The position numbers were made by a program, and so were the translations under genes. The notes below the pieces were generated by a model. It did not search any database. It worked only from the letters and a program-made list of their open reading frames with translations, and was not told the DNA's origin. DNA of 64,000 nt, taken from NCBI GenBank assembly GCA_904066235.2, contig CAJFCV020000004.1, positions 2,480,001 to 2,544,000 on the forward strand, in the 5' to 3' direction. The stretch comes from Bursaphelenchus xylophilus. Its lineage: Eukaryota > Nematoda > Chromadorea > Rhabditida > Aphelenchoididae. This document shows positions 27,277-37,105 of this stretch, in pieces (position 1 is the stretch's first letter; each line of letters starts with the position of its first letter).

Positions 27277-27440
27277 TCACGACTTCGCGTGCGAATTTGC
27301 ATATTCCCACGGAATGACCGACAAATTGGTCTAAAAGGAAGAGAAATCGCCAATTATGTAGTATTATTTTTGTGTCTTGTCTTTTCCCGCTTATGCGGTT
27401 GTGTCCAATAAAGTCTACTGTATTTACTATTTGTCTATTG
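27277..27440 (+). repeat. LTR-like repeat, copy 1
   Basis: Begins tcacgacttcgcgtgcgaat, contains ggtctaaaaggaag and later ccaataaagtctactg, and matches 31581-31760 in the same orientation. A TATA-like box followed about 100 bases later by a poly(A) signal is the layout of a retroviral-type LTR. No internal gag/pol frame lies beside it, so it is at most a solo LTR or a fragment. Confidence 0.5.
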
Positions 27441-27619
27441 ATTTGTGTATGGTCTCTTGTGTTGTTGGAGTCAAGCATTGTGAGTTCATTTGTGAAGTTG
27501 TTGCCTAGGGCATAGTTAGTTGTATTGTCGCTTGTTTGAATAGTTGTTGTCTTCGTGTTCGCATAGGGCTTGGGATCTTAGGTAGAACTATGTAGATTAG
27601 GGACCCTTATCACTTGCTG

Positions 27620-28030: not shown

Positions 28031-28130
28031 CAACCTTGGCTTTTAAACCGGTCATAATTCAATTAAAAACTTGAATTTATTATTAAATTATGTTTTAAAA
28101 TTTTAGAATATCAATGAAAAACGATTTATA
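28031..28130 (-). promoter_or_regulatory. orphan S1-family 5' flank (lost copy)
   Basis: The block cttggcttttaaaccggtca + taattcaattaaaaa is the same one found directly upstream of each of the four S1 peptide genes, yet the coding part below it is replaced by the F1-like fragment. It is the remains of a fifth array member. Confidence 0.6.
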
Positions 28131-28786
28131 ATCACGTCGTTATTTCTCTGACATTTCAAACACGCTCTTTTTTTGATACAAAAATTTGACAGTTTCTTGT
28201 ATTTTTGGTTATATCTTTGTGTTCTTTGCAGCTACCTACAAAATTCAAGATGTATTTAAAATTCGTAATTGCGCGTTTTTATTATACACAAAGAATTTTT
28301 TCAAGTCTCGGCGGAGAGAAAATTTTTCGGCGGAGGCATTCGATGTCTTTCTTGAAAATTATACCTTGTTAGAAAGCCCACACTTCTTTACTACGGATGA
28401 AATTGGGTTTTGTCATATTGGTAGATTGTTGACTGTTAGTTTCGATAACTTGTTGGATGTTTCACACATCGGCGAAGGCTCGGCGGAGACTTTATAACGG
28501 CGGGCATCGTTTTGGACTCTCAATTTTTGCATTTTTGGTATTTCCTCCCGCAAAAGCCGTCGATAGGAATGCCAAACAATAAGACAATTATTTGGAAATA
28601 TGTAAAATTCCACTATAATTATTTTCTGTTGTTATTGGTAGAGTAGACAGAAAAATTTGTTAAAATTTTGTTGCCCGAGCCTTGAAGAGCCCATATTCAA
28701 AAACATGGGTTTAAAGTTATCATGGTGGTAACGAATCTGATATTTATTGAGAAGAATATATCATAAAGCAGAGTTTTAATTCTTTA

Positions 28787-28988
28787 TCAAGGACGTTTTG
28801 TTGTTGGCTTGGCGGTGGCCATGATTAATTTCACCATTTCAAGCCAACTGCGACGAGCTACAAGATAACAAAGAGCATTGTTATACGTGGTGCCTAGACT
28901 TACGGAAACAGCCGCCTGGACCATAAATTCCTTGCACGGCGCACACCATGATTGCAAAGATAAAAAGAACTTTACCAATGTTGAACAT
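28787..28988 (-). CDS. small secreted peptide, family S1 copy A, 51 aa, 2 exons
   Basis: Exon 1 is 28988-28904 and exon 2 is 28857-28787, with a 46-base intron (gtaagtctag..atcttgtag). The signal peptide is MFNIGKVLFIFAIMVCAVQG. The mature peptide is IYGPGGCFPRRSW.. with the family tail TAKPTTKRP. A minus-strand AATAAA lies about 40 bases past the stop. The upstream flank aaaccggtcataattcaatt is shared by all copies. Frames read straight through the intron stop early, so splicing is needed. No known family is recognised. Confidence 0.65.
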
Positions 28989-29545
28989 GTTGGGATTAGT
29001 CACTTCGATACCGCGTCTTGGCTTTTAAACCGGTCATAATTCAATTAAAAATTTTGAATTTATTATTAATTTATAATGTCAAGTTTAGTATCAAGTTTAC
29101 TGACCAAATTGACACATTAAAATTGAAAAAAACGGCCTTTATTTGTGTCAATTTTTATCAATTTATTAACTTGTAAAATTTAGGAATATTGATTAAAAAA
29201 GATTTATGATTATAGCGGTAACTTCCAGTGTTGGTGTAGTTTTTTATATGGGTTTAACGTCATCTACAAAATTTCATTTATTTCCGTGCTATTTTTCAGA
29301 TAAAATTTATGTAATGTATGGATTATATATGTGTATAATACATATATTATGAAATAAATATGTAATGCCAGTTTATAGATGCGGTCGTGAAATATCATCA
29401 TAGTTTTTTTTCTGTTGTTATTGGTACAGTAGTGAGAAACTTTTGTTAAAATTTTGTCTCCGAGCCTTATTTAAGGTGTTTCATCGTGGTAATGAGTTTG
29501 ATATTTATTGAAAAAATTATCACAAAGCAGTATATTGATTCTTTA

Positions 29546-29744
29546 TCAAGGACGTTTGGTTGTTGGCTTGGCGGCGGCTATGATTAATCCCCTTTCTTCT
29601 AGCCATTCTCTTGCTGCAAGATAACAAAAGGCGTCGTTATACGTAATGTCTAGACTTACGGATCCAGCTATATTTGCCCACAATTCCTTGCACGCCGCAC
29701 ACCATGATTGCAAGGATAAAAAGCACTTTACCAATGTTGAACAT
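29546..29744 (-). CDS. small secreted peptide, family S1 copy B, 50 aa, 2 exons
   Basis: Exon 1 is 29744-29660 and exon 2 is 29613-29546, with a 46-base intron (gtaagtctag..atcttgcag). The signal peptide MFNIGKVLFILAIMVCGVQG is followed by IVGKYSWIPREWLEERG and the tail AAAKPTTKRP. Unlike copies A, C and D the mature part has no cysteine. The spacer to copy C (29850-30180) is itself a duplicate of the A-B spacer (29180-29500), so the whole unit was duplicated. Confidence 0.65.
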
Positions 29745-30198
29745 GTTGGGATCGTCGACTTCGAAACCGAGTCTTGGCTTTTAAACCGGTCATAATTCAA
29801 TTAAAAATTTGAATTTATTATTAAATTATGTTGTAAAATTTAGGAATATTGATTAAAAAAGATTTCTGATCACAGCGGTAACTTCCAGTATTGGTGGAGC
29901 TTTTTATATGGTTTTAACGTCTTCTACAAAATTTCGTTTATTTCCGTGATATTTTTCACATAAAATTTATGTATTGTATGGACTATATATGTGTATAATA
30001 ATATCATGAAATAAATAATGCCAGTTTAGAGATGCGGTAGTCAAATGTCACCATAATTTCTTTCTGTTGTTATTGGCACAGCAGTCATAAACTTTTGTTA
30101 AAATTTTGTCTCCGAGCCTTATTTAAGGTGTTTCATTGTGGTAATGAGTTGGATATTTATTGAAAAAAATTATCACAAAGCAGAATATTGATCCTTGA

Positions 30199-30430
30199 TC
30201 AAGAACGTTTGGTTGTTGGCTTGGCGGTGGTCAGTATAAGCAAGGGAAATTTCCGTGAGATGGGGAAGATGGTCGAGAGTCTTGGCCGACCGAAAGCTGC
30301 AAGATAACAAAAGGCGTCGTTATACGTGGTGCCTAGACTTACGGAAACAGCCACCATATCTTCCCCAAAGTCCTTGCACGGCGCACACCATGATTGCAAG
30401 GATAAAAAGAACTTTACCAGTGTTGAACAT
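30199..30430 (-). CDS. small secreted peptide, family S1 copy C, 61 aa, 2 exons
   Basis: Exon 1 is 30430-30343 and exon 2 is 30296-30199, with a 46-base intron. The signal peptide MFNTGKVLFILAIMVCAVQG is followed by LWGRYGGCFPFGRPRLS and TIFPISRKFPLLI, then the tail TAKPTTKRS. The second exon is about ten codons longer than in A and B, and the insertion is basic and hydrophobic. The same shared flank lies upstream. An R2 fragment (30528-30865) separates it from copy D. Confidence 0.65.
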
Positions 30431-30527
30431 CTTGGAATCAGCAATTTGGAAACCGGGTCTTGGCTTTAAACCGGTCATAATTCAATTATTACTCAAAATT
30501 CAATTAAAAATTTGAATTTATTATTAA

Positions 30528-30865
30528 ATTAACGGCTCACGCTTTGCAGAAACAACCGAGATTTTCGTTAGATCGAAAGTCGGCGAAAATTTAAGAATTT
30601 TTGTCGTATTTCGGCACGAAAATTTTCATGCCAATTTCTACCATGAGGATAATGTTTCCACAAAAAATCTTTTTTTCCGCACGGAACTAGCAAATTTATG
30701 GCCAAAAGTGTTTTTCTCTCTGACCGCTATTTGTGTTTAGTGCTCTCAAAGATCGTTCAATATCTTGGTGGAGCTTGCAAAGCGTGAGCTAAAACTTTCA
30801 GGAATTGACATTTAGTTCATGACCGACGTGTGCGCAAAATTTAAAGAAAATCTGGGCGTCGACAA
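30528..30865. repeat. R2 MITE fragment
   Basis: Carries the family marks (acgctttgcagaaacaaccg, tctctctgaccgctat, aatctgggcgtcgac) but lacks the outer ends. It lies between S1 copies C and D. Confidence 0.7.
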
Positions 30866-31069
30866 TATATTATCACGGCGTTTCTTTGACATTGCAAACA
30901 CGCTCTTTTTTGATACATTTTTTACTTCAGGTAAAAAAAAACTTTTGTTTCCCGAGCCTTTGAAAGACCACATTCAAAAATATTGCTTGAAGATTTTCAT
31001 GATGGCAATGAATTTAATATTTATTGAAAAAATGTTATTAATATATTAAAGTAGAATGTTTCCTCTTTG

Positions 31070-31267
31070 TCAAAGAGTTTTTGTTCGTGGCTTGGCGGTG
31101 GCCAGTCTAGCCCAGATTTCTTCCAGTGTTAACCTTGGAAGAACTGCAATATAACAAAAGGGGTCGTTATAGTGACAAGACTTACGACAAGATTTGCCAC
31201 ATTTCATTCCTTGCACGGCGCACACCATGATTGCAAGGATAAAAAGAACTTTACCAATGTTGAACAT
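31070..31267 (-). CDS. small secreted peptide, family S1 copy D, 51 aa (or 65 aa unspliced)
   Basis: Exon 1 is 31267-31186 and exon 2 is 31143-31070, with a 42-base intron (gtaagtcttg..atattgcag). Spliced, it reads signal peptide MFNIGKVLFILAIMVCAVQG, then MKCGKSCLLPRLTLEEIW and the tail TAKPRTKTL. Because 42 is a multiple of three and the intron has no stop, the unspliced frame is also open (65 aa) and adds two more cysteines (RKSCHYNDPFCYIA). The splice sites are the same as in A-C, where splicing is obligatory, so the spliced form is preferred, but both may be made. Confidence 0.6.
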   Translation of the reverse strand: MFNIGKVLFILAIMVCAVQGMKCGKSCRKSCHYNDPFCYIAVLPRLTLEEIWARLATAKPRTKTL

Positions 31268-31450
31268 CTTGGGATCAGCAACTTCGAAACCGAGTCATGA
31301 CTTTTAAACCGGTCATAATTCAATTAAAAATTTGAATTTATACTAATTAAATTACAATATCAAAATCAACTGACCAAATTGACACGTTAAAATTGAAAAG
31401 AAACAGCTTTCATCTGTGTCAATTTTCATCGGAAAAAAACGTTTTTTTTG

Positions 31451-32059
31451 TATGTGCAGTGAAAGACCTGATCCAGTGGCAAAAAAGCGTACCATTTCGC
31501 ATCCGAGAAGCATCAAGAATGTGGCGAAATGCTTCCCTTTCCAAGTGAAAGAACTTCGTTTTGAAGGGCGCGCGCGCCTTTCACGACTTCGCGTGCGAAT
31601 TTGCATATTCCCACGGAATGACCGACAAATTGGTATAAAAGGAAGAGAAATCACGAATTATGATTGTATTATTTTTGTGTTTTGTCTTTTCCCGGTTGTG
31701 TTGTATGCAATAAACCGTTGTATTTTCTACTGTAGTCTATTGTTGTTGTATGGTGGTCCCATCGTCTGGAGTCAATACCGTGAGTTTACAGTTCTATTGC
31801 CAGAGTCCTCTAGTCTGTGTCTCCGGTTTATCAGAGGGTAGTGAATACTAGTAGTAGCGGGCAAGTTAAGGGCCATCTTACACGACTCATAGCTAACAAA
31901 TTGTAAGTCGTGATACGCCCTTTCCCTCACAAAAAGAGCGGGCGCGCTTTTGAAATCGGGGTTTTGTCACATGGAGAGGGAAGAATTTTGCCACATTTTT
32001 GATACTTCCCGGATGCAAAATGATACTTTTTTTGCCACTGGATCAGGTCCCCCACTGTA
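31451..32059. repeat. R1 MITE split by an LTR-like insertion
   Basis: The left half starts gaaagacctgatccagtggc and the right half ends ggatcaggtcccccactgta. Between them is the 333-bp LTR-like block. The R1 body breaks at its central cgcgccctttc turn. Confidence 0.75.
31581..31913 (+). repeat. LTR-like repeat, copy 2 (solo)
   Basis: Bounded by tcacgactt and its inverse aagtcgtga. It contains ggtataaaaggaag and, about 70 bases on, gcaataaaccgttg. It matches the block at 27277-27440. It inserted into the centre of an R1 copy. The ends do not show the usual TG..CA and I cannot see an exact target duplication, so a MITE with promoter-like content remains possible. Confidence 0.55.
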
Positions 32060-32158
32060 TATAACTGATATATTTATTTGCTCTTTACCATAGATATATT
32101 AGATGATATCACATTTCAATTAAAGCTTTGTACATTGAAATACCCATGACGATGTTCT

Positions 32159-35100
32159 CTAATCTTCCAATTTTTTCTTTCCCTTCTCCACACTCTCACT
32201 TTGATATCCCTCTTTCGTGTAATACGCTGGCTCGGCCGTTGCGAACTTGTAGAAGGCCCCATTGGCAAAGAAAAGGAGTCCAGCGACGATCAGAAAGATT
32301 GTCCGCCACTGCTCTTTGGCGGTTTCGTCATCCACAAAGACCGCGACCATAGCCGGCCCCAGGAAAAGCACAATGCATTTGAGGAATTGGCAGTTCGCCA
32401 CAACGAAATGACTATACTGTCGGGTGTAAAGAACCCCCAATTTGTAGAATCCACCACATGCGGCGCCTGTGACAGTGTTCAAAAGTCCGATGCAGAGGAC
32501 CGCCAGGAATGGAGTGTCATCAGGGACAAAGCCGATTGCAATGTAGAATATGCCGGCGCCAGCAACGGTAATCGTGTTGAAGAACATTAGTTTGGCGGTG
32601 TCGGACATGAACCTAAAAATAATGAGCGATTATGTATAGGTATCTTCTACAGTGTTGGATAGGAAATACCCCTTTGATCAAGAAAGTCTGTAAATAATTT
32701 ATTTTAATGAAATTTGGGGTTGGTCTAGAGTCATCGACCGTGTAATCGACCGTGCTTATTTAAAAAAAAACCCTTTTTTTTATTAAATACCTTTACTAAA
32801 CGCATAGCATATGTGTTAAAAAGTTGTAAACTTGGCTCAAGTCTCTTTAAGATTCAATTGTTGTACAGTGACGGGCCTGATCCAGTATCAAAAAATGTAC
32901 CATTTTACATTCATGGAGTATCAAAAAATGTGGCAAAATGCCTCCCTCTAAAACTAATAGGGCAGGCTCTTCAAAACGGAGTTTTTTCACTTGAAGAAGG
33001 AGGTGTTTTGCTACACTTTTTGATACTTCCCGGATGCAAAATGGCACATTTTTTGACACTGAACCCAGGTCCTTCACTGTACAACACTTGAATTTCAAAG
33101 AGGACCCACTTCAAATGCGTTGAAAAATGAGTTCAAAAGGTCGTCTTTGACAGACTAAAGAAGTTGAAGCAGGCGGGATACTACTGTAATTTTACTACTC
33201 AATCATGCACTCATACAGTGACGGACTTGATCCAGTGTCTAGAAATGTACCATTTTGCATCCGGGAAGTATAAAAAAATGTGGCAAAATGCCTCGCTCTC
33301 CAACTAAAAAGCTTTGTTTTGAAGGCTTTCCCTCACAAAAAAAGCGAGCGCGCTTTTGAAATCTGAGTTTTTTCACTTGGAGAGGGAGGTATTTTACCAC
33401 ATTTTTTGAAGCTTCCTGGATGCAAAACGATACCTTTTCTGCCTTTGGATCACTGCCGCCACTGTACCTCAACAACCTCTCCATTAGCAGAAATCATAAA
33501 CAAACCCTCAAAGCCTACGTTATTTTATCGCTGAGTAGGCCACAAATCAGTCGGAATGGGACTTGCGTCACCCTGGAAATCGCCGACAAATGTCCAGTAG
33601 CCTCCACTGAGTAATGAAGAACATTTTTCATATAATACGGAGCATAAACGGCGAAGAAATTGGTTGAAAAAATCTCGGTGAACGCGTTCAGCCACACACA
33701 CCACACCACAAGGTCCGTCAAGATGGCCTTGTAGGGCATATTGGTCTCGCCGTTGATTTGGGCGGCACTCTTGTTTCGATGAATCTTCTCCAGCTCAACA
33801 CCGCTCACTCTGCTCGACATTTGCGGCGCATCCGAGTAGTACAAAAACCAGAGGGCGAAGATGAGCAGCGAGACGAAACAATGGCCATAGAAAATCATTG
33901 GCCAGCCGAACGAGGAGTTGCAAATCATCCCACTCACCGAGTTGGTGATTCCAGTCGATAGTGGAGAGTATGAGGTGAGGACGCCGAGGAAGAAGCCGTT
34001 TTGTTTGAGAGAAGCCCATTTGGAGCAGACCATTCCAACGGCCGCAAAGTCAGCGGCATATGAGACTCCCTGAAAGGTAAAAAGGTAGGTGAATGAAGGT
34101 TGAGAAACATAGATATTAACATCGAGAGGGTTGTAATTGTGTAACAATCATATAGTTTGACTTTGTGAGAATGCAGGCGCTTTTATGGCGTCTGCCTTGC
34201 AGGAAATGCCGCGGATTTTAAGGTCGATTTTTATCGACGATTTTCAGATTTGACGCCCTATACAGTGGTGGACCTGATCCAGTGGCAAAAAAAACGTACC
34301 ATTTTGCATCCAGGAAGCTTCAAAAAATGTGGTAAAACACCTCCCTCTCCAAGTGAAAAAAACTCAGATTTCAAAAGCGCGCCCGCTCTTTTTGTGAGAA
34401 AAAAGCGCGCCCTTCAAAATGAAGTTTTTCACTTGGAGAGGGAAGCATTTTGCCACATTTTTGATATTTCCCGGATACAAAATGGTACGTTTTTTGCCAC
34501 TGGATCAGCTCCCCCACTGTACTTTCCGTCGCAAGGAAAATGCACGGTACAGACTCTAATTCGTAGCCTGCATCAAAAATATGCGAAAAACAGCTGAATG
34601 CATAAGCGGCAAACAGGGGAGAAAAGGCAAAAATAGTCTGTCGGGAAAATGGTGAGCATTCTGCGGCATTGAAAATTGCATTGCCGCAATTGCCACCGTG
34701 AAAATAAATTATGTCGCGGCAAAATCAAATTTTTTTTTCATTTCAGCAACGGGATTGGCACAGCGACGAAAAATAGTGTGCTCATTATTTTCCCGACAGA
34801 CTGATAGTAAATAGGCCATGCAAAATTTTGCTACAAAGACAGCCTAAAATCTACCCCTCTTCTTGAACATTTATCCCAGTACTTTTACTCACCTGTAGGA
34901 ACCTCATAGCCAACAACAAATAAATATTGATCTGCGCCGCTGATGGCATTAATCCCGTCGAAATGGCGGACAAAATTCCAGCAAAAAGGAATGGGTATTT
35001 GGCTCCATACCGACTGTATGCCTCGGTAAAAGGGATCGTCGCAAGAGCCGTGCCGACTCCGACAGCTCCATTAATCAGCGACAGCTCTTTCGGTGTGTAG

Positions 35101-35312
35101 TCGATTGTAGGATGAGGACTGGGTATTGACTGAAAATGAGGTCTTGAAAAGTCGTTTTCTACACTTACAGTTTCATTGATATTTGAATCGGATGCCATAC
35201 AAACTTGGGCAATATTAAAGGCCAACATGTTGGATGAGATCGAGGTTAATGCCAGACAACCGATGATTAAGATAAGGTATCGGAAACGATGAGAACAACA
35301 GGCGTCCGCCAT
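32159..35312 (-). CDS. major facilitator transporter, SLC17-like, 461 aa, 4 exons
   Basis: Exons are 35312-35169, 35129-34893, 34069-33519 and 32612-32159. Introns are 39, 823 and 906 bases and the phases close to 461 aa, normal for SLC17 (Na/phosphate and anion cotransporter, vesicular glutamate) proteins. Marks: an N-terminal helix (YLILIIGCLALTSISSN), glycosylation-type NET in the first luminal loop, YTPKELSLINGAVGVGTALA, YSRYGAKYPF, MRFLQGVSYAADFAAVGMV, KWASLKQNGFFLGV, then YYSDAP and the late LICGLLSDKITFMSDTAK. The C-terminus ends in AYYTKEGYQSE and a Lys-rich stretch, cytosolic as in the family. The substrate cannot be told from sequence. A minus-strand AATAAA lies near 32078. Introns 2 and 3 hold three R1 and one R3. 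Confidence 0.9.
32864..33081. repeat. R1 MITE copy
   Basis: Runs from tacagtgacgggcctgatcc to ggtccttcactgta, with a shortened centre, in intron 3 of the transporter. Confidence 0.8.
33214..33466. repeat. R1 MITE copy
   Basis: Runs from tacagtgacggacttgatcc to gatcactgccgccactgta, 53 bases before exon 3 of the transporter in plus coordinates. Confidence 0.8.
34261..34521. repeat. R1 MITE copy
   Basis: Runs from tacagtggtggacctgatcc to ggatcagctcccccactgta, in intron 2 of the transporter. Confidence 0.85.
34633..34806. repeat. R3 MITE copy
   Basis: Runs from agtctgtcgggaaaatggtg to attttcccgacagactgata, in intron 2 of the transporter. Confidence 0.85.
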
Positions 35313-37105
35313 TTTTGATATGCTTTGGTTTCGCGAGTGATATGTTAGAATGGAGTAGGCTTAGTGACCTGAAAATTAAGTCATCATAGAGAAACAGTAC
35401 TCGATTTTGAAGTGGCTTTCGAAACATGTCCCGCAACAAATTATTAACATTACATAAAAGTTTATTGTTGAAATTTCGATTGTTGTAAGAGACAAATAAG
35501 TATGGACAAAGTCATAAAAAGTGATTGAAGGCTAGGAGAAGGCTTAGTTAGGTGAAATTAAGATTGATAACGTCCTAGGATAGCTGTTCACCTATTTTGA
35601 GGTATTTGACATGTACTCACATCAATAATATCAAGGTAAAAGTTACGGAAATTCGTTTTCTGCCGCAAATTTTGGTCTTTTATACGTTACAATAACTCAG
35701 GGTGAAGAAAACTAACGTTAGTATAATATAAAAAGTAGACATAATACAAGCCTCCGCCAAGCCTTCGCCGAGCGTCCGCCGACCACCCAGCTGCTTTGTC
35801 AGACCTTGTAGCCCTACAACCCTATTTCGGGCATTTGCTTGCCCTAGTGATCGATTTTTTTGATGATCCGAACTGTTGTCAATCCGAAAGGACGGGAAGA
35901 CAAAAGCAGCATTTTTCGAAGAAAACGGAAGCCTTCTAAATTCAACGCCAAGATTTCCTTCAACTCTTTGAGGCATGAACCGGATATCAATTGCAAATGT
36001 TGAAAACTTTAGCACCGAACTTTAACGCTTAGCCTCCGGTAATAAACGATGTTTGAAGAAGGATCTGTGCAAATTATCAGCAGAAAAATTGATGCTTTAT
36101 CGAAGAATTGTTTGAAGAAAAATGCCAATTTGTATGCCAGCCCTTGCCAACCTGCATAAAATAAAAAGTATGGCCTATAATCAAAAAATGGCTTCATATA
36201 GCAAATGCGCAGTAAACATTCCGAAAACTCAATTTTTTCGGTCATTACTCGTAACTGATACCATATGTAATACAAAAAATTTTCTTGCTATTTAAGCAGA
36301 TTTATGATCAGCGGTGTTTGAAGGGATCAAAATCAAAGCCGTCCAAGTGTTCGCTTGCATTTCAACGTCCCAGAAACGCTTAATATTTGCGTTCAAACAT
36401 TTTTCTTCAAATCTATTTGAACCCAACGGCTAGACAAACAAAAAAATGAACGGTGATGTAATAATATACAGTAGGGAACATCAAAACGCATCTTTTCAGT
36501 TTCAAAAACCCTGGTAAAGTTTATGGCCCTATTCTGAGGCTACAGTGAAAAATGAGCGAAACGCAACGCGTATTTATATCGAAAAACGCGATAGTTTGAT
36601 AATCTCTCTCGCTGGTCAGGTCAAATTTTGCGAGGGAAACGGTATCCTTTCGTAAACGTTTATTTAGAGTGCGTATCGTTTCGGGTTGATAAAAAAAAAT
36701 TTGTTTGTTGAAAGATCAACGAAATGGAAATTTATGGCTTCGGGGGTTTGATCGCAGCATTGCGGGGGGTACTGTTTGGGTCTGCTCGGCCAAATTTTGT
36801 GTCATTGTAAGAGATTGATCAATGCTTCGTTATCAATACTGTAGCGTTAACTCTGAATTCTATCAGGGTTGAGTCAGAAGACGGCACGTTTGGGAAGAGG
36901 GCAACCGGAGGGAAGAGTGAACTTTGAGAAAAAATATGGTTAGGGGGGACCAAGGCAGACTTTTCAAGAACGATTTTCTTTTTGGTTTTCAAAGAGAATG
37001 GTATGGTAAAGAAAAGAAGCGCAAAGTGTACTCTCTCGCCCCAAAAACTTCCATATTTCTTCACGAAAATATCTTTGGCGAATTTTCAACTCACTTTTTT
37101 TGACT

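What the first reader, a model, noticed from the sequence alone, without database searches (positions are those of the whole stretch)
28031..31380. Tandem array of four tiny secreted peptides with conserved ends and diverged middle
All four genes share the signal peptide, a single phase-1 intron of 42-46 bases, the tail T/A-AKPTTKRP and a 5' flank with aaaccggtcataattcaatt. The mature segment between differs almost completely (GPGGCF, GKYSWI, GRYGGCF, KCGKSC). That pattern is seen in fast-evolving immune or signalling peptides. A fifth promoter without a gene lies at 28031-28130.
Basis: partly seen in the sequence, partly recalled or inferred. Interest (0 to 1): 0.75.

Follow-up and report, generated by a model that had tools for sequence, protein, structure and literature searches.

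The report
Fast-changing secreted mini-peptides in pinewood nematode
Four neighbouring genes in the pinewood nematode look like recent copies that would make tiny secreted peptides with similar ends but very different middles, a pattern usual for molecules in contact with enemies, hosts or rivals; whether they are expressed, and what they do, was not tested.

Summary
Four minus-strand genes (28787-31267) share a hydrophobic leader, one phase-1 intron (46, 46, 46, 42 nt), a basic Thr/Pro tail (exact AKPTTKRP in 2 of 4), a promoter block and AATAAA. The assembly is Bursaphelenchus xylophilus Ka4C1 v5. Scans found three more members: a tandem pair about 225 kb away and an intronless copy on another scaffold. 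An alignment of six members found no protein relative at E<=10, in a database that holds B. xylophilus proteins. Leader and tail are recognisable in 21 of 21 pairs; the middle in 6 of 7 within-cluster and 2 of 14 between-cluster pairs. The intron is better kept than the coding stretch before it (6 of 7 pairs) and after it (7 of 7, some narrowly). In the middle dN exceeds dS in the distal pair and 1 of 6 array pairs; array synonymous change there is also high, so saturation, or exchange that spared the middle, is possible. Best reading: a lineage-restricted family of small, net-positive secreted peptides with a diversifying middle, most likely defensive or antagonistic. Function, splicing and secretion are inferred. 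STATAWAARS is absent from 300 bp upstream of 7 of 7 genes. Expression was not testable.

The parts
28904..28988 (-). gene 1 exon 1: leader plus first variable segment
   Evidence: leader core (residues 7-19) mean hydropathy 2.73
28858..28903 (-). gene 1 intron, 46 nt, phase 1
   Evidence: GTAAGT...TTGTAG; inferred, no transcript seen
28787..28857 (-). gene 1 exon 2: second variable segment, TAKPTTKRP tail, stop
28743..28748 (-). gene 1 AATAAA poly(A)-signal-like hexamer
   Evidence: offset 38 nt after the stop; place read
29660..29744 (-). gene 2 exon 1
29614..29659 (-). gene 2 intron, 46 nt, phase 1
   Evidence: inferred
29546..29613 (-). gene 2 exon 2 with AAKPTTKRP tail and stop
29504..29509 (-). 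gene 2 AATAAA
   Evidence: offset 36; place read
30343..30430 (-). gene 3 exon 1
30297..30342 (-). gene 3 intron, 46 nt, phase 1
   Evidence: inferred
30199..30296 (-). gene 3 exon 2 (longest middle of the array) with TAKPTTKRS tail and stop
   Evidence: DNA search with 30199-30300 found only itself at E<=10
30156..30161 (-). gene 3 AATAAA
   Evidence: offset 37; place read
31186..31267 (-). gene 4 exon 1
31144..31185 (-). gene 4 intron, 42 nt, phase 1; in frame and without stop if retained
   Evidence: inferred
31070..31143 (-). gene 4 exon 2 with diverged TAKPRTKTL tail and stop
31020..31025 (-). gene 4 AATAAA
   Evidence: offset 44; place read
29027..29046 (-). gene 1 promoter-block core (AATTGAATTATGACCGGTTT in gene sense)
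29783..29802 (-). gene 2 promoter-block core
30468..30487 (-). gene 3 promoter-block core
31306..31325 (-). gene 4 promoter-block core
28035..28142 (-). orphan promoter block without a gene, 88% like the gene-2 flank
   Evidence: core exact at 28045-28064
28202..28515 (.). dispersed repeat between the orphan promoter block and gene 1
   Evidence: 52 matches listed for 28131-28700, the query itself included; a lower bound (40 of 220 candidates scored)

Best explanation
This is a young, lineage-restricted family of very small secreted-peptide genes in Bursaphelenchus xylophilus, seven found so far: four in the window array, a tandem pair about 225 kb away on the same scaffold and a single intronless copy on another scaffold. 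Shown by sequence: a shared promoter block, an N-terminal hydrophobic leader, a basic Thr/Pro tail, and a 21-36 residue middle that diverges much more than the leader and tail and, in the array, more than the intron that interrupts it. Inferred: the leader sends the peptide out of the cell; the tail is a shared working part (wall or surface attachment, glycosylation or processing); the middle meets a changing partner and is pushed to diversify, while duplication and exchange between copies renew the rest. The most likely role is an extracellular defensive or antagonistic peptide (antimicrobial-like: short, net positive in 7 of 7), acting against microbes, fungi or the host.
For: The same anatomy in 7 of 7 loci, with the frame kept across a phase-1 intron in 6 of 6 intron-bearing copies (the acceptors of the distal pair were set by eye at 43 nt). 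Leader recognisable in 21 of 21 pairs (0 of 200 shuffles each), tail in 21 of 21 (at most 1 of 200), middle in only 2 of 14 between-cluster pairs. In the 12 array-versus-other pairs the tail shows pS 0.64-0.91 against pN 0.05-0.28, i.e. constraint at protein level. Middle against intron: g2-g3 30/63 v 3/46, g1-g4 35/63 v 9/42, d1-d2 21/99 v 5/43; one-sided Fisher p 1.6e-6, 4.4e-4, 0.13 (3 of 7 within-cluster pairs tested). d1-d2 middle dN 0.29, dS 0.14; nonsynonymous 18/75 v synonymous plus intron 10/90, p 0.023. Predicted mature charge +3 to +8 in 7 of 7, cleavage after residue 20 assumed. Promoter block alignable in 7 of 7 plus the orphan, though its ACCGGT core is changed in the distal pair.
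Against: No transcript or peptide was seen; splicing and secretion are inferred. With free-gap DNA alignment the contrast is weaker: middle below the noncoding flanks at p<0.05 in 5 of 7 pairs and below the intron in 2 of 7. In the array dN does not exceed dS in 5 of 6 pairs, and the tail of gene 4 has itself changed (pN 0.23-0.29, pS 0.06-0.19 against genes 1-3). No match to a known peptide family. GATA-type sites are not enriched upstream (HGATAR 4 seen, shuffle mean 10.4); that C. [quoted passage not shown] The middles share no cysteine framework (mature parts hold 0-2 Cys) and their own charge is only 0 to +5.
Confidence: 0.5

Rival explanations
1. Plant- or fungus-directed effectors: the peptides are made in the pharyngeal glands and injected, and host recognition drives the middle to change.
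For: The organism is B. xylophilus, a plant-parasitic nematode; conserved ends with a variable centre are described for HYP effectors of cyst nematodes (abstract and passages of PMC11228951); these are short orphan proteins with a leader.
Against: STATAWAARS, the promoter motif tied to gland expression in this species (passages of PMC6062891), is absent from the 300 bp upstream of 7 of 7 genes (0.2 expected in shuffles). Weak evidence: that paper reports the motif in only 597 of 17,735 genes.
Confidence: 0.25
2. Old divergence kept alive: exchange between tandem copies homogenises promoter, leader, intron and 3' flank, while selection keeps copies with different middles (as proposed for introns of MHC genes; recalled). 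The middle then looks fast only because it is older than its surroundings.
For: Array middles have high synonymous divergence (pS 0.31-0.69) while introns differ at 7-21%. Two-against-two sites favour g1+g2 in the second variable segment (6 of 9) but g1+g4 / g2+g3 downstream (10 of 13; 1 of 13 for g1+g2), Fisher p 0.0066, a contrast chosen after seeing the data.
Against: Needs very short exchange tracts around a 46-nt intron. The distal pair d1-d2 has no raised pS in the middle (0.12), so ordinary selection is enough there.
Confidence: 0.3
3. Relaxed constraint: the middle is only a spacer between leader and tail, so it drifts freely and takes up indels; the tail is the active part.
For: Middle lengths vary from 21 to 36 residues with codon indels; tail constrained between clusters.
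Against: Neutral drift should not exceed the intron; in 2 of the 3 pairs tested it does, strongly, and the third goes the same way without significance; d1-d2 has dN about twice dS in the middle.
Confidence: 0.2
4. Self- or mate-recognition peptides, with the middle serving as an identity tag, as for SELF-1 of Pristionchus.
For: SELF-1 is a small nematode peptide with a hypervariable segment and variable copy number between strains (passages of PMC10721034).
Against: In SELF-1 the variable part is the C-terminus; here the C-terminus is the better conserved end. No strain data here.
Confidence: 0.08

Closest known systems
HYP (hyper-variable) effectors of Globodera
   Same: Signal peptide, nearly identical 5' and 3' coding ends, highly variable centre, no known domain (abstract and passages of PMC11228951).
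   Different: HYP variation is allelic at single loci and made of shuffled motifs inside one exon; here it lies between tandem genes, in two segments either side of an intron, and the proteins are far shorter. I saw no repeated motif in the middles but ran no motif search on them.
nlp-29 antimicrobial peptide cluster of C. elegans
   Same: Small clustered antimicrobial-peptide genes, recent duplication, diversification by selection (abstract and passages of PMC2453101).
   Different: No sequence relation found; the middles are not of the Gly/Tyr-rich type (that motif is recalled); no enrichment of GATA sites.
SELF-1 of Pristionchus pacificus
   Same: Small nematode peptide with a hypervariable segment and a paralogue (passages of PMC10721034).
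   Different: SELF-1 varies at the C-terminus; here the C-terminal tail is conserved and the middle varies.
Venom peptide genes such as conotoxins and snake phospholipases A2 (recalled, no call)
   Same: Conserved signal region and introns with fast-changing mature coding sequence.
   Different: Those keep a cysteine framework; this family has none (0-2 Cys) and keeps a C-terminal tail.

Membership tests
Secreted peptide (general) | N-terminal signal peptide | tested here: inconclusive
   Lys (5) or Arg (2) then a hydrophobic core (residues 7-19, mean hydropathy 2.06-2.81) in 7 of 7 and a V-Q-G cleavage-like end in 6 of 7 (sequences); no trained predictor was run.
Fast-evolving tandem peptide family (kind) | conserved leader, variable mature part, tandem duplication | tested here: met
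Fast-evolving tandem peptide family (kind) | positive selection (dN>dS) on the variable part | tested here: inconclusive
   dN>dS for d1-d2 (0.29 v 0.14) and for g3-g4 (0.63 v 0.39); not for the other 5 of 6 array pairs.
HYP effectors | shuffling of defined motifs inside one exon of a single-gene locus | tested here: not met
   Several tandem genes; the variable part is split by an inferred intron and differs by substitutions and codon indels between paralogues. Alleles could not be examined.
B. [quoted passage not shown]
   0 of 7 genes
C. elegans nlp/cnc antimicrobial peptides | sequence relation to a known family | tested here: not met
   No Pfam family above its cut-off for 7 of 7 proteins (best DAP10 E 0.017 and TrbC E 0.13, both under cut-off); profile of six members: no PDB chain at E<=1, no protein at E<=10. 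nlp/cnc sequences were not compared directly.
C. elegans nlp/cnc antimicrobial peptides | induction by infection; antimicrobial activity | not testable with these tools
   no expression data or assay
SELF-1 | hypervariable C-terminus | tested here: not met
   C-terminal tail is a conserved end

The most novel reading that the evidence does not exclude
A nematode recognition or attack-peptide system in which copies in one array keep exchanging promoter, leader, intron and 3' flank while the two coding segments either side of a tiny intron are held apart, so the array acts as a store of distinct middles on a fixed two-ended scaffold; strains would then carry different sets of middles.
Probability: 0.12. 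Interest if true: 0.8.

Novelty: new member of a known kind. Interest (0 to 1): 0.45.

Why it matters
No relative was found in the protein collection searched, although that collection holds B. xylophilus and B. okinawaensis proteins, so the family is probably unannotated and absent from lists built on those annotations, in a major forest pest. If expressed, its variable middle gives a small, testable case of what drives diversification of nematode peptides (microbes, host or rivals), and its intron gives a neutral yardstick only tens of bases from the changing codons.

Tried and rejected
Coding reading of the introns: in the frame of exon 2 the introns of genes 1-3 read TYN[DN]A[FL]CYL.A and gene 4 HYNDPFCYIA, and in gene 4 the 42-nt intron is in frame and open. 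I considered that the intron is really coding; rejected as the main model because genes 1-3 meet a stop when read on from the leader, and the distal pair has an intron of unlike sequence at the same phase with a like tail. It stays possible as an extra isoform of gene 4.

Cassette donor: exon 2 of gene 3 has no second match in the assembly at E<=10; exon 2 of the other genes was not searched this way. Retrocopy origin of the intronless copy: not favoured, because its upstream region matches that of the distal pair (80% over 188 query bases).

The 2-mismatch hit of the flank at C6:7172258 shows no family leader or tail in the 1 kb translated in three forward frames or in a six-frame motif scan of the 9 kb around it, apart from one loose tail-motif match without a leader. 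Rfam (gathering threshold) and tRNA scans of the window gave nothing. A first species search with one transporter exon named only other nematodes, because full-length proteins were outside its length limits; one search settled it. A search for the leader and tail letters found 0 papers. Searches listed no paper on such a family; I judged by title and abstract start only, and saw 25 of 108, 20 of 1,148 and 10 of 69. Passages of a B. xylophilus secretome paper (PMC3689755) held nothing on it. One search scored only 40 of 894 candidates; 36 of its 40 rows match just the first 74 or so bases of the query and were set aside as a dispersed repeat. An earlier count said the repeat at 28202-28515 sits where a fifth gene would be; that is wrong, it lies on the upstream side.

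Full report
Where it is. The window is C4:2480001-2544000 of a 78,253,340-base assembly in 8 contigs. A transporter pieced together from window reading frames matches at 97% a B. xylophilus protein whose source contig is 12,794,883 bases long, the length of C4. The Ka4C1 v5 paper, read whole (PMC7561696), gives 78.3 Mb, 11 scaffolds and an N50 of 12,794 kb. So this is the pinewood nematode; the 8 contigs held here are fewer than the 11 of the paper.

The genes. Four gene models on the minus strand each have a leader MFN.GKVLFI.AIMVC.VQG, a short variable stretch, one phase-1 intron (46, 46, 46, 42 nt), a second variable stretch and a tail. Tails: TAKPTTKRP, AAKPTTKRP, TAKPTTKRS, TAKPRTKTL. All four have AATAAA 36-44 nt after the stop; the intronless copy has it at 30; the distal pair has none in the first 100 nt. 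The units repeat every 686-837 nt. An orphan promoter block lies at 28035-28142; upstream of it 28202-28515 is a dispersed repeat.

The rest of the family. A DNA search with part of gene 3 (5 matches), a protein search (6), searches with the two outside members and two degenerate patterns together give seven loci; each hit all seven. Outside the array these are d1 at C4:2282938 and d2 at C4:2283748, a tandem pair each with a 43-nt phase-1 intron and tail TTAKPTTRRF, and c6 at C6:10514956, an intronless 65-aa frame with tail TTAKPATKRP. The leader pattern gave 7 hits against 1 for its reversed control, the tail pattern 6 against 0 (gene 4 is missed because its tail has changed). d2 has a weak acceptor (TTTTAAG), so its splice is the least certain.

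Not found elsewhere. A six-member alignment (all but d2) found no protein at E<=10 among 477 candidates sharing short words, in a collection that does hold B. xylophilus and B. okinawaensis proteins. No Pfam family reached its cut-off for the seven proteins and no PDB chain matched the six-member profile at E<=1.

How it changes. Within the array, leaders differ at 1-3 of 60 nt and introns are 79-93% identical. Codon alignments of the middle differ at about 40-56% of aligned nucleotides, with 1-12 codons of gap. For three non-overlapping pairs out of the seven within-cluster pairs, middle against intron is 30/63 v 3/46, 35/63 v 9/42 and 21/99 v 5/43 (p 1.6e-6, 4.4e-4, 0.13). With free-gap alignment, which flatters short stretches, the middle is below the noncoding flanks at p<0.05 in 5 of 7 pairs and below the intron in 2 of 7; segment by segment the intron beats the first variable stretch in 6 of 7 pairs and the second in 7 of 7, in three of them by 1-3 points. 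Leader and tail stay recognisable in 21 of 21 pairs; the middle in 6 of 7 within-cluster pairs and 2 of 14 between clusters. In the 12 array-versus-other pairs the tail has pS 0.64-0.91 and pN 0.05-0.28, and the leader is closer to even (pS 0.21-0.44, pN 0.16-0.26), so constraint on the tail as protein is the clearer of the two. Against that, the tail of gene 4 differs from genes 1-3 mostly by amino-acid changes (pN 0.23-0.29, pS 0.06-0.19).

Against a simple story. In the array the middle is also rich in synonymous change (pS 0.31-0.69), and dN exceeds dS in 1 of 6 pairs (g3-g4). This may be saturation, misplaced codons, or older middles in a background made alike by exchange. Informative sites point to exchange: 6 of 9 in the second variable segment group g1+g2, while 10 of 13 downstream group g1+g4 and g2+g3 (p 0.0066, contrast chosen after seeing the data). 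In d1-d2 the middle has dN 0.29 and dS 0.14, the ordinary mark of diversifying selection, on few sites.

What it does. Predicted mature parts are 30-45 residues with net charge +3 to +8 and 0-2 cysteines (a cut after residue 20 is assumed for all seven). Together with tandem duplication, a shared promoter and a shifting middle, this fits secreted defensive or antagonistic peptides best, by analogy with the nlp-29 cluster (PMC2453101, abstract and passages). A gland-effector reading is not excluded, but the STATAWAARS motif is absent from the 300 bp upstream of 7 of 7. GATA-type sites are not enriched (4 against a shuffle mean of 10.4). Function is inference throughout.

Verdict. A real, probably unannotated family of a known kind, with two unusual touches: a conserved tail as well as a conserved leader, and an intron better kept than the coding sequence on both sides of it.

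Noticed in passing
31144-31185: The 42-nt intron of gene 4 is in frame and free of stops, so a retained-intron product of 65 aa with four cysteines after the leader is possible; the other three introns give a stop.
   Followed up: partly
27277-27453 and 31581-31754: Direct repeats (about 86% over 180 columns) lie on either side of the array; the right-hand one sits between inverted repeats (31451-31486 / 32028-32063) whose surroundings recur many times in the window. They may have helped duplication.
   Followed up: partly
L019:4957-5154: The C6 family member is a single open frame without intron yet shares its upstream region with the distal pair, so the intron was probably lost without a retrocopy step.
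   Followed up: partly
L020:5509-5749: The second distal copy has an AAG acceptor where its neighbour has CAG; its splicing is uncertain.
   Followed up: no
32159-35360: Multi-exon major-facilitator transporter gene on the minus strand beside the array; the pieced-together product is 97% identical to B. xylophilus protein P0006.
   Followed up: partly
upstream of genes 1-4, e.g. 29027-29046: The promoter block contains an ATG (ATGACCGG in gene sense) ahead of the main start; whether it lies in the transcript is unknown.
   Followed up: no
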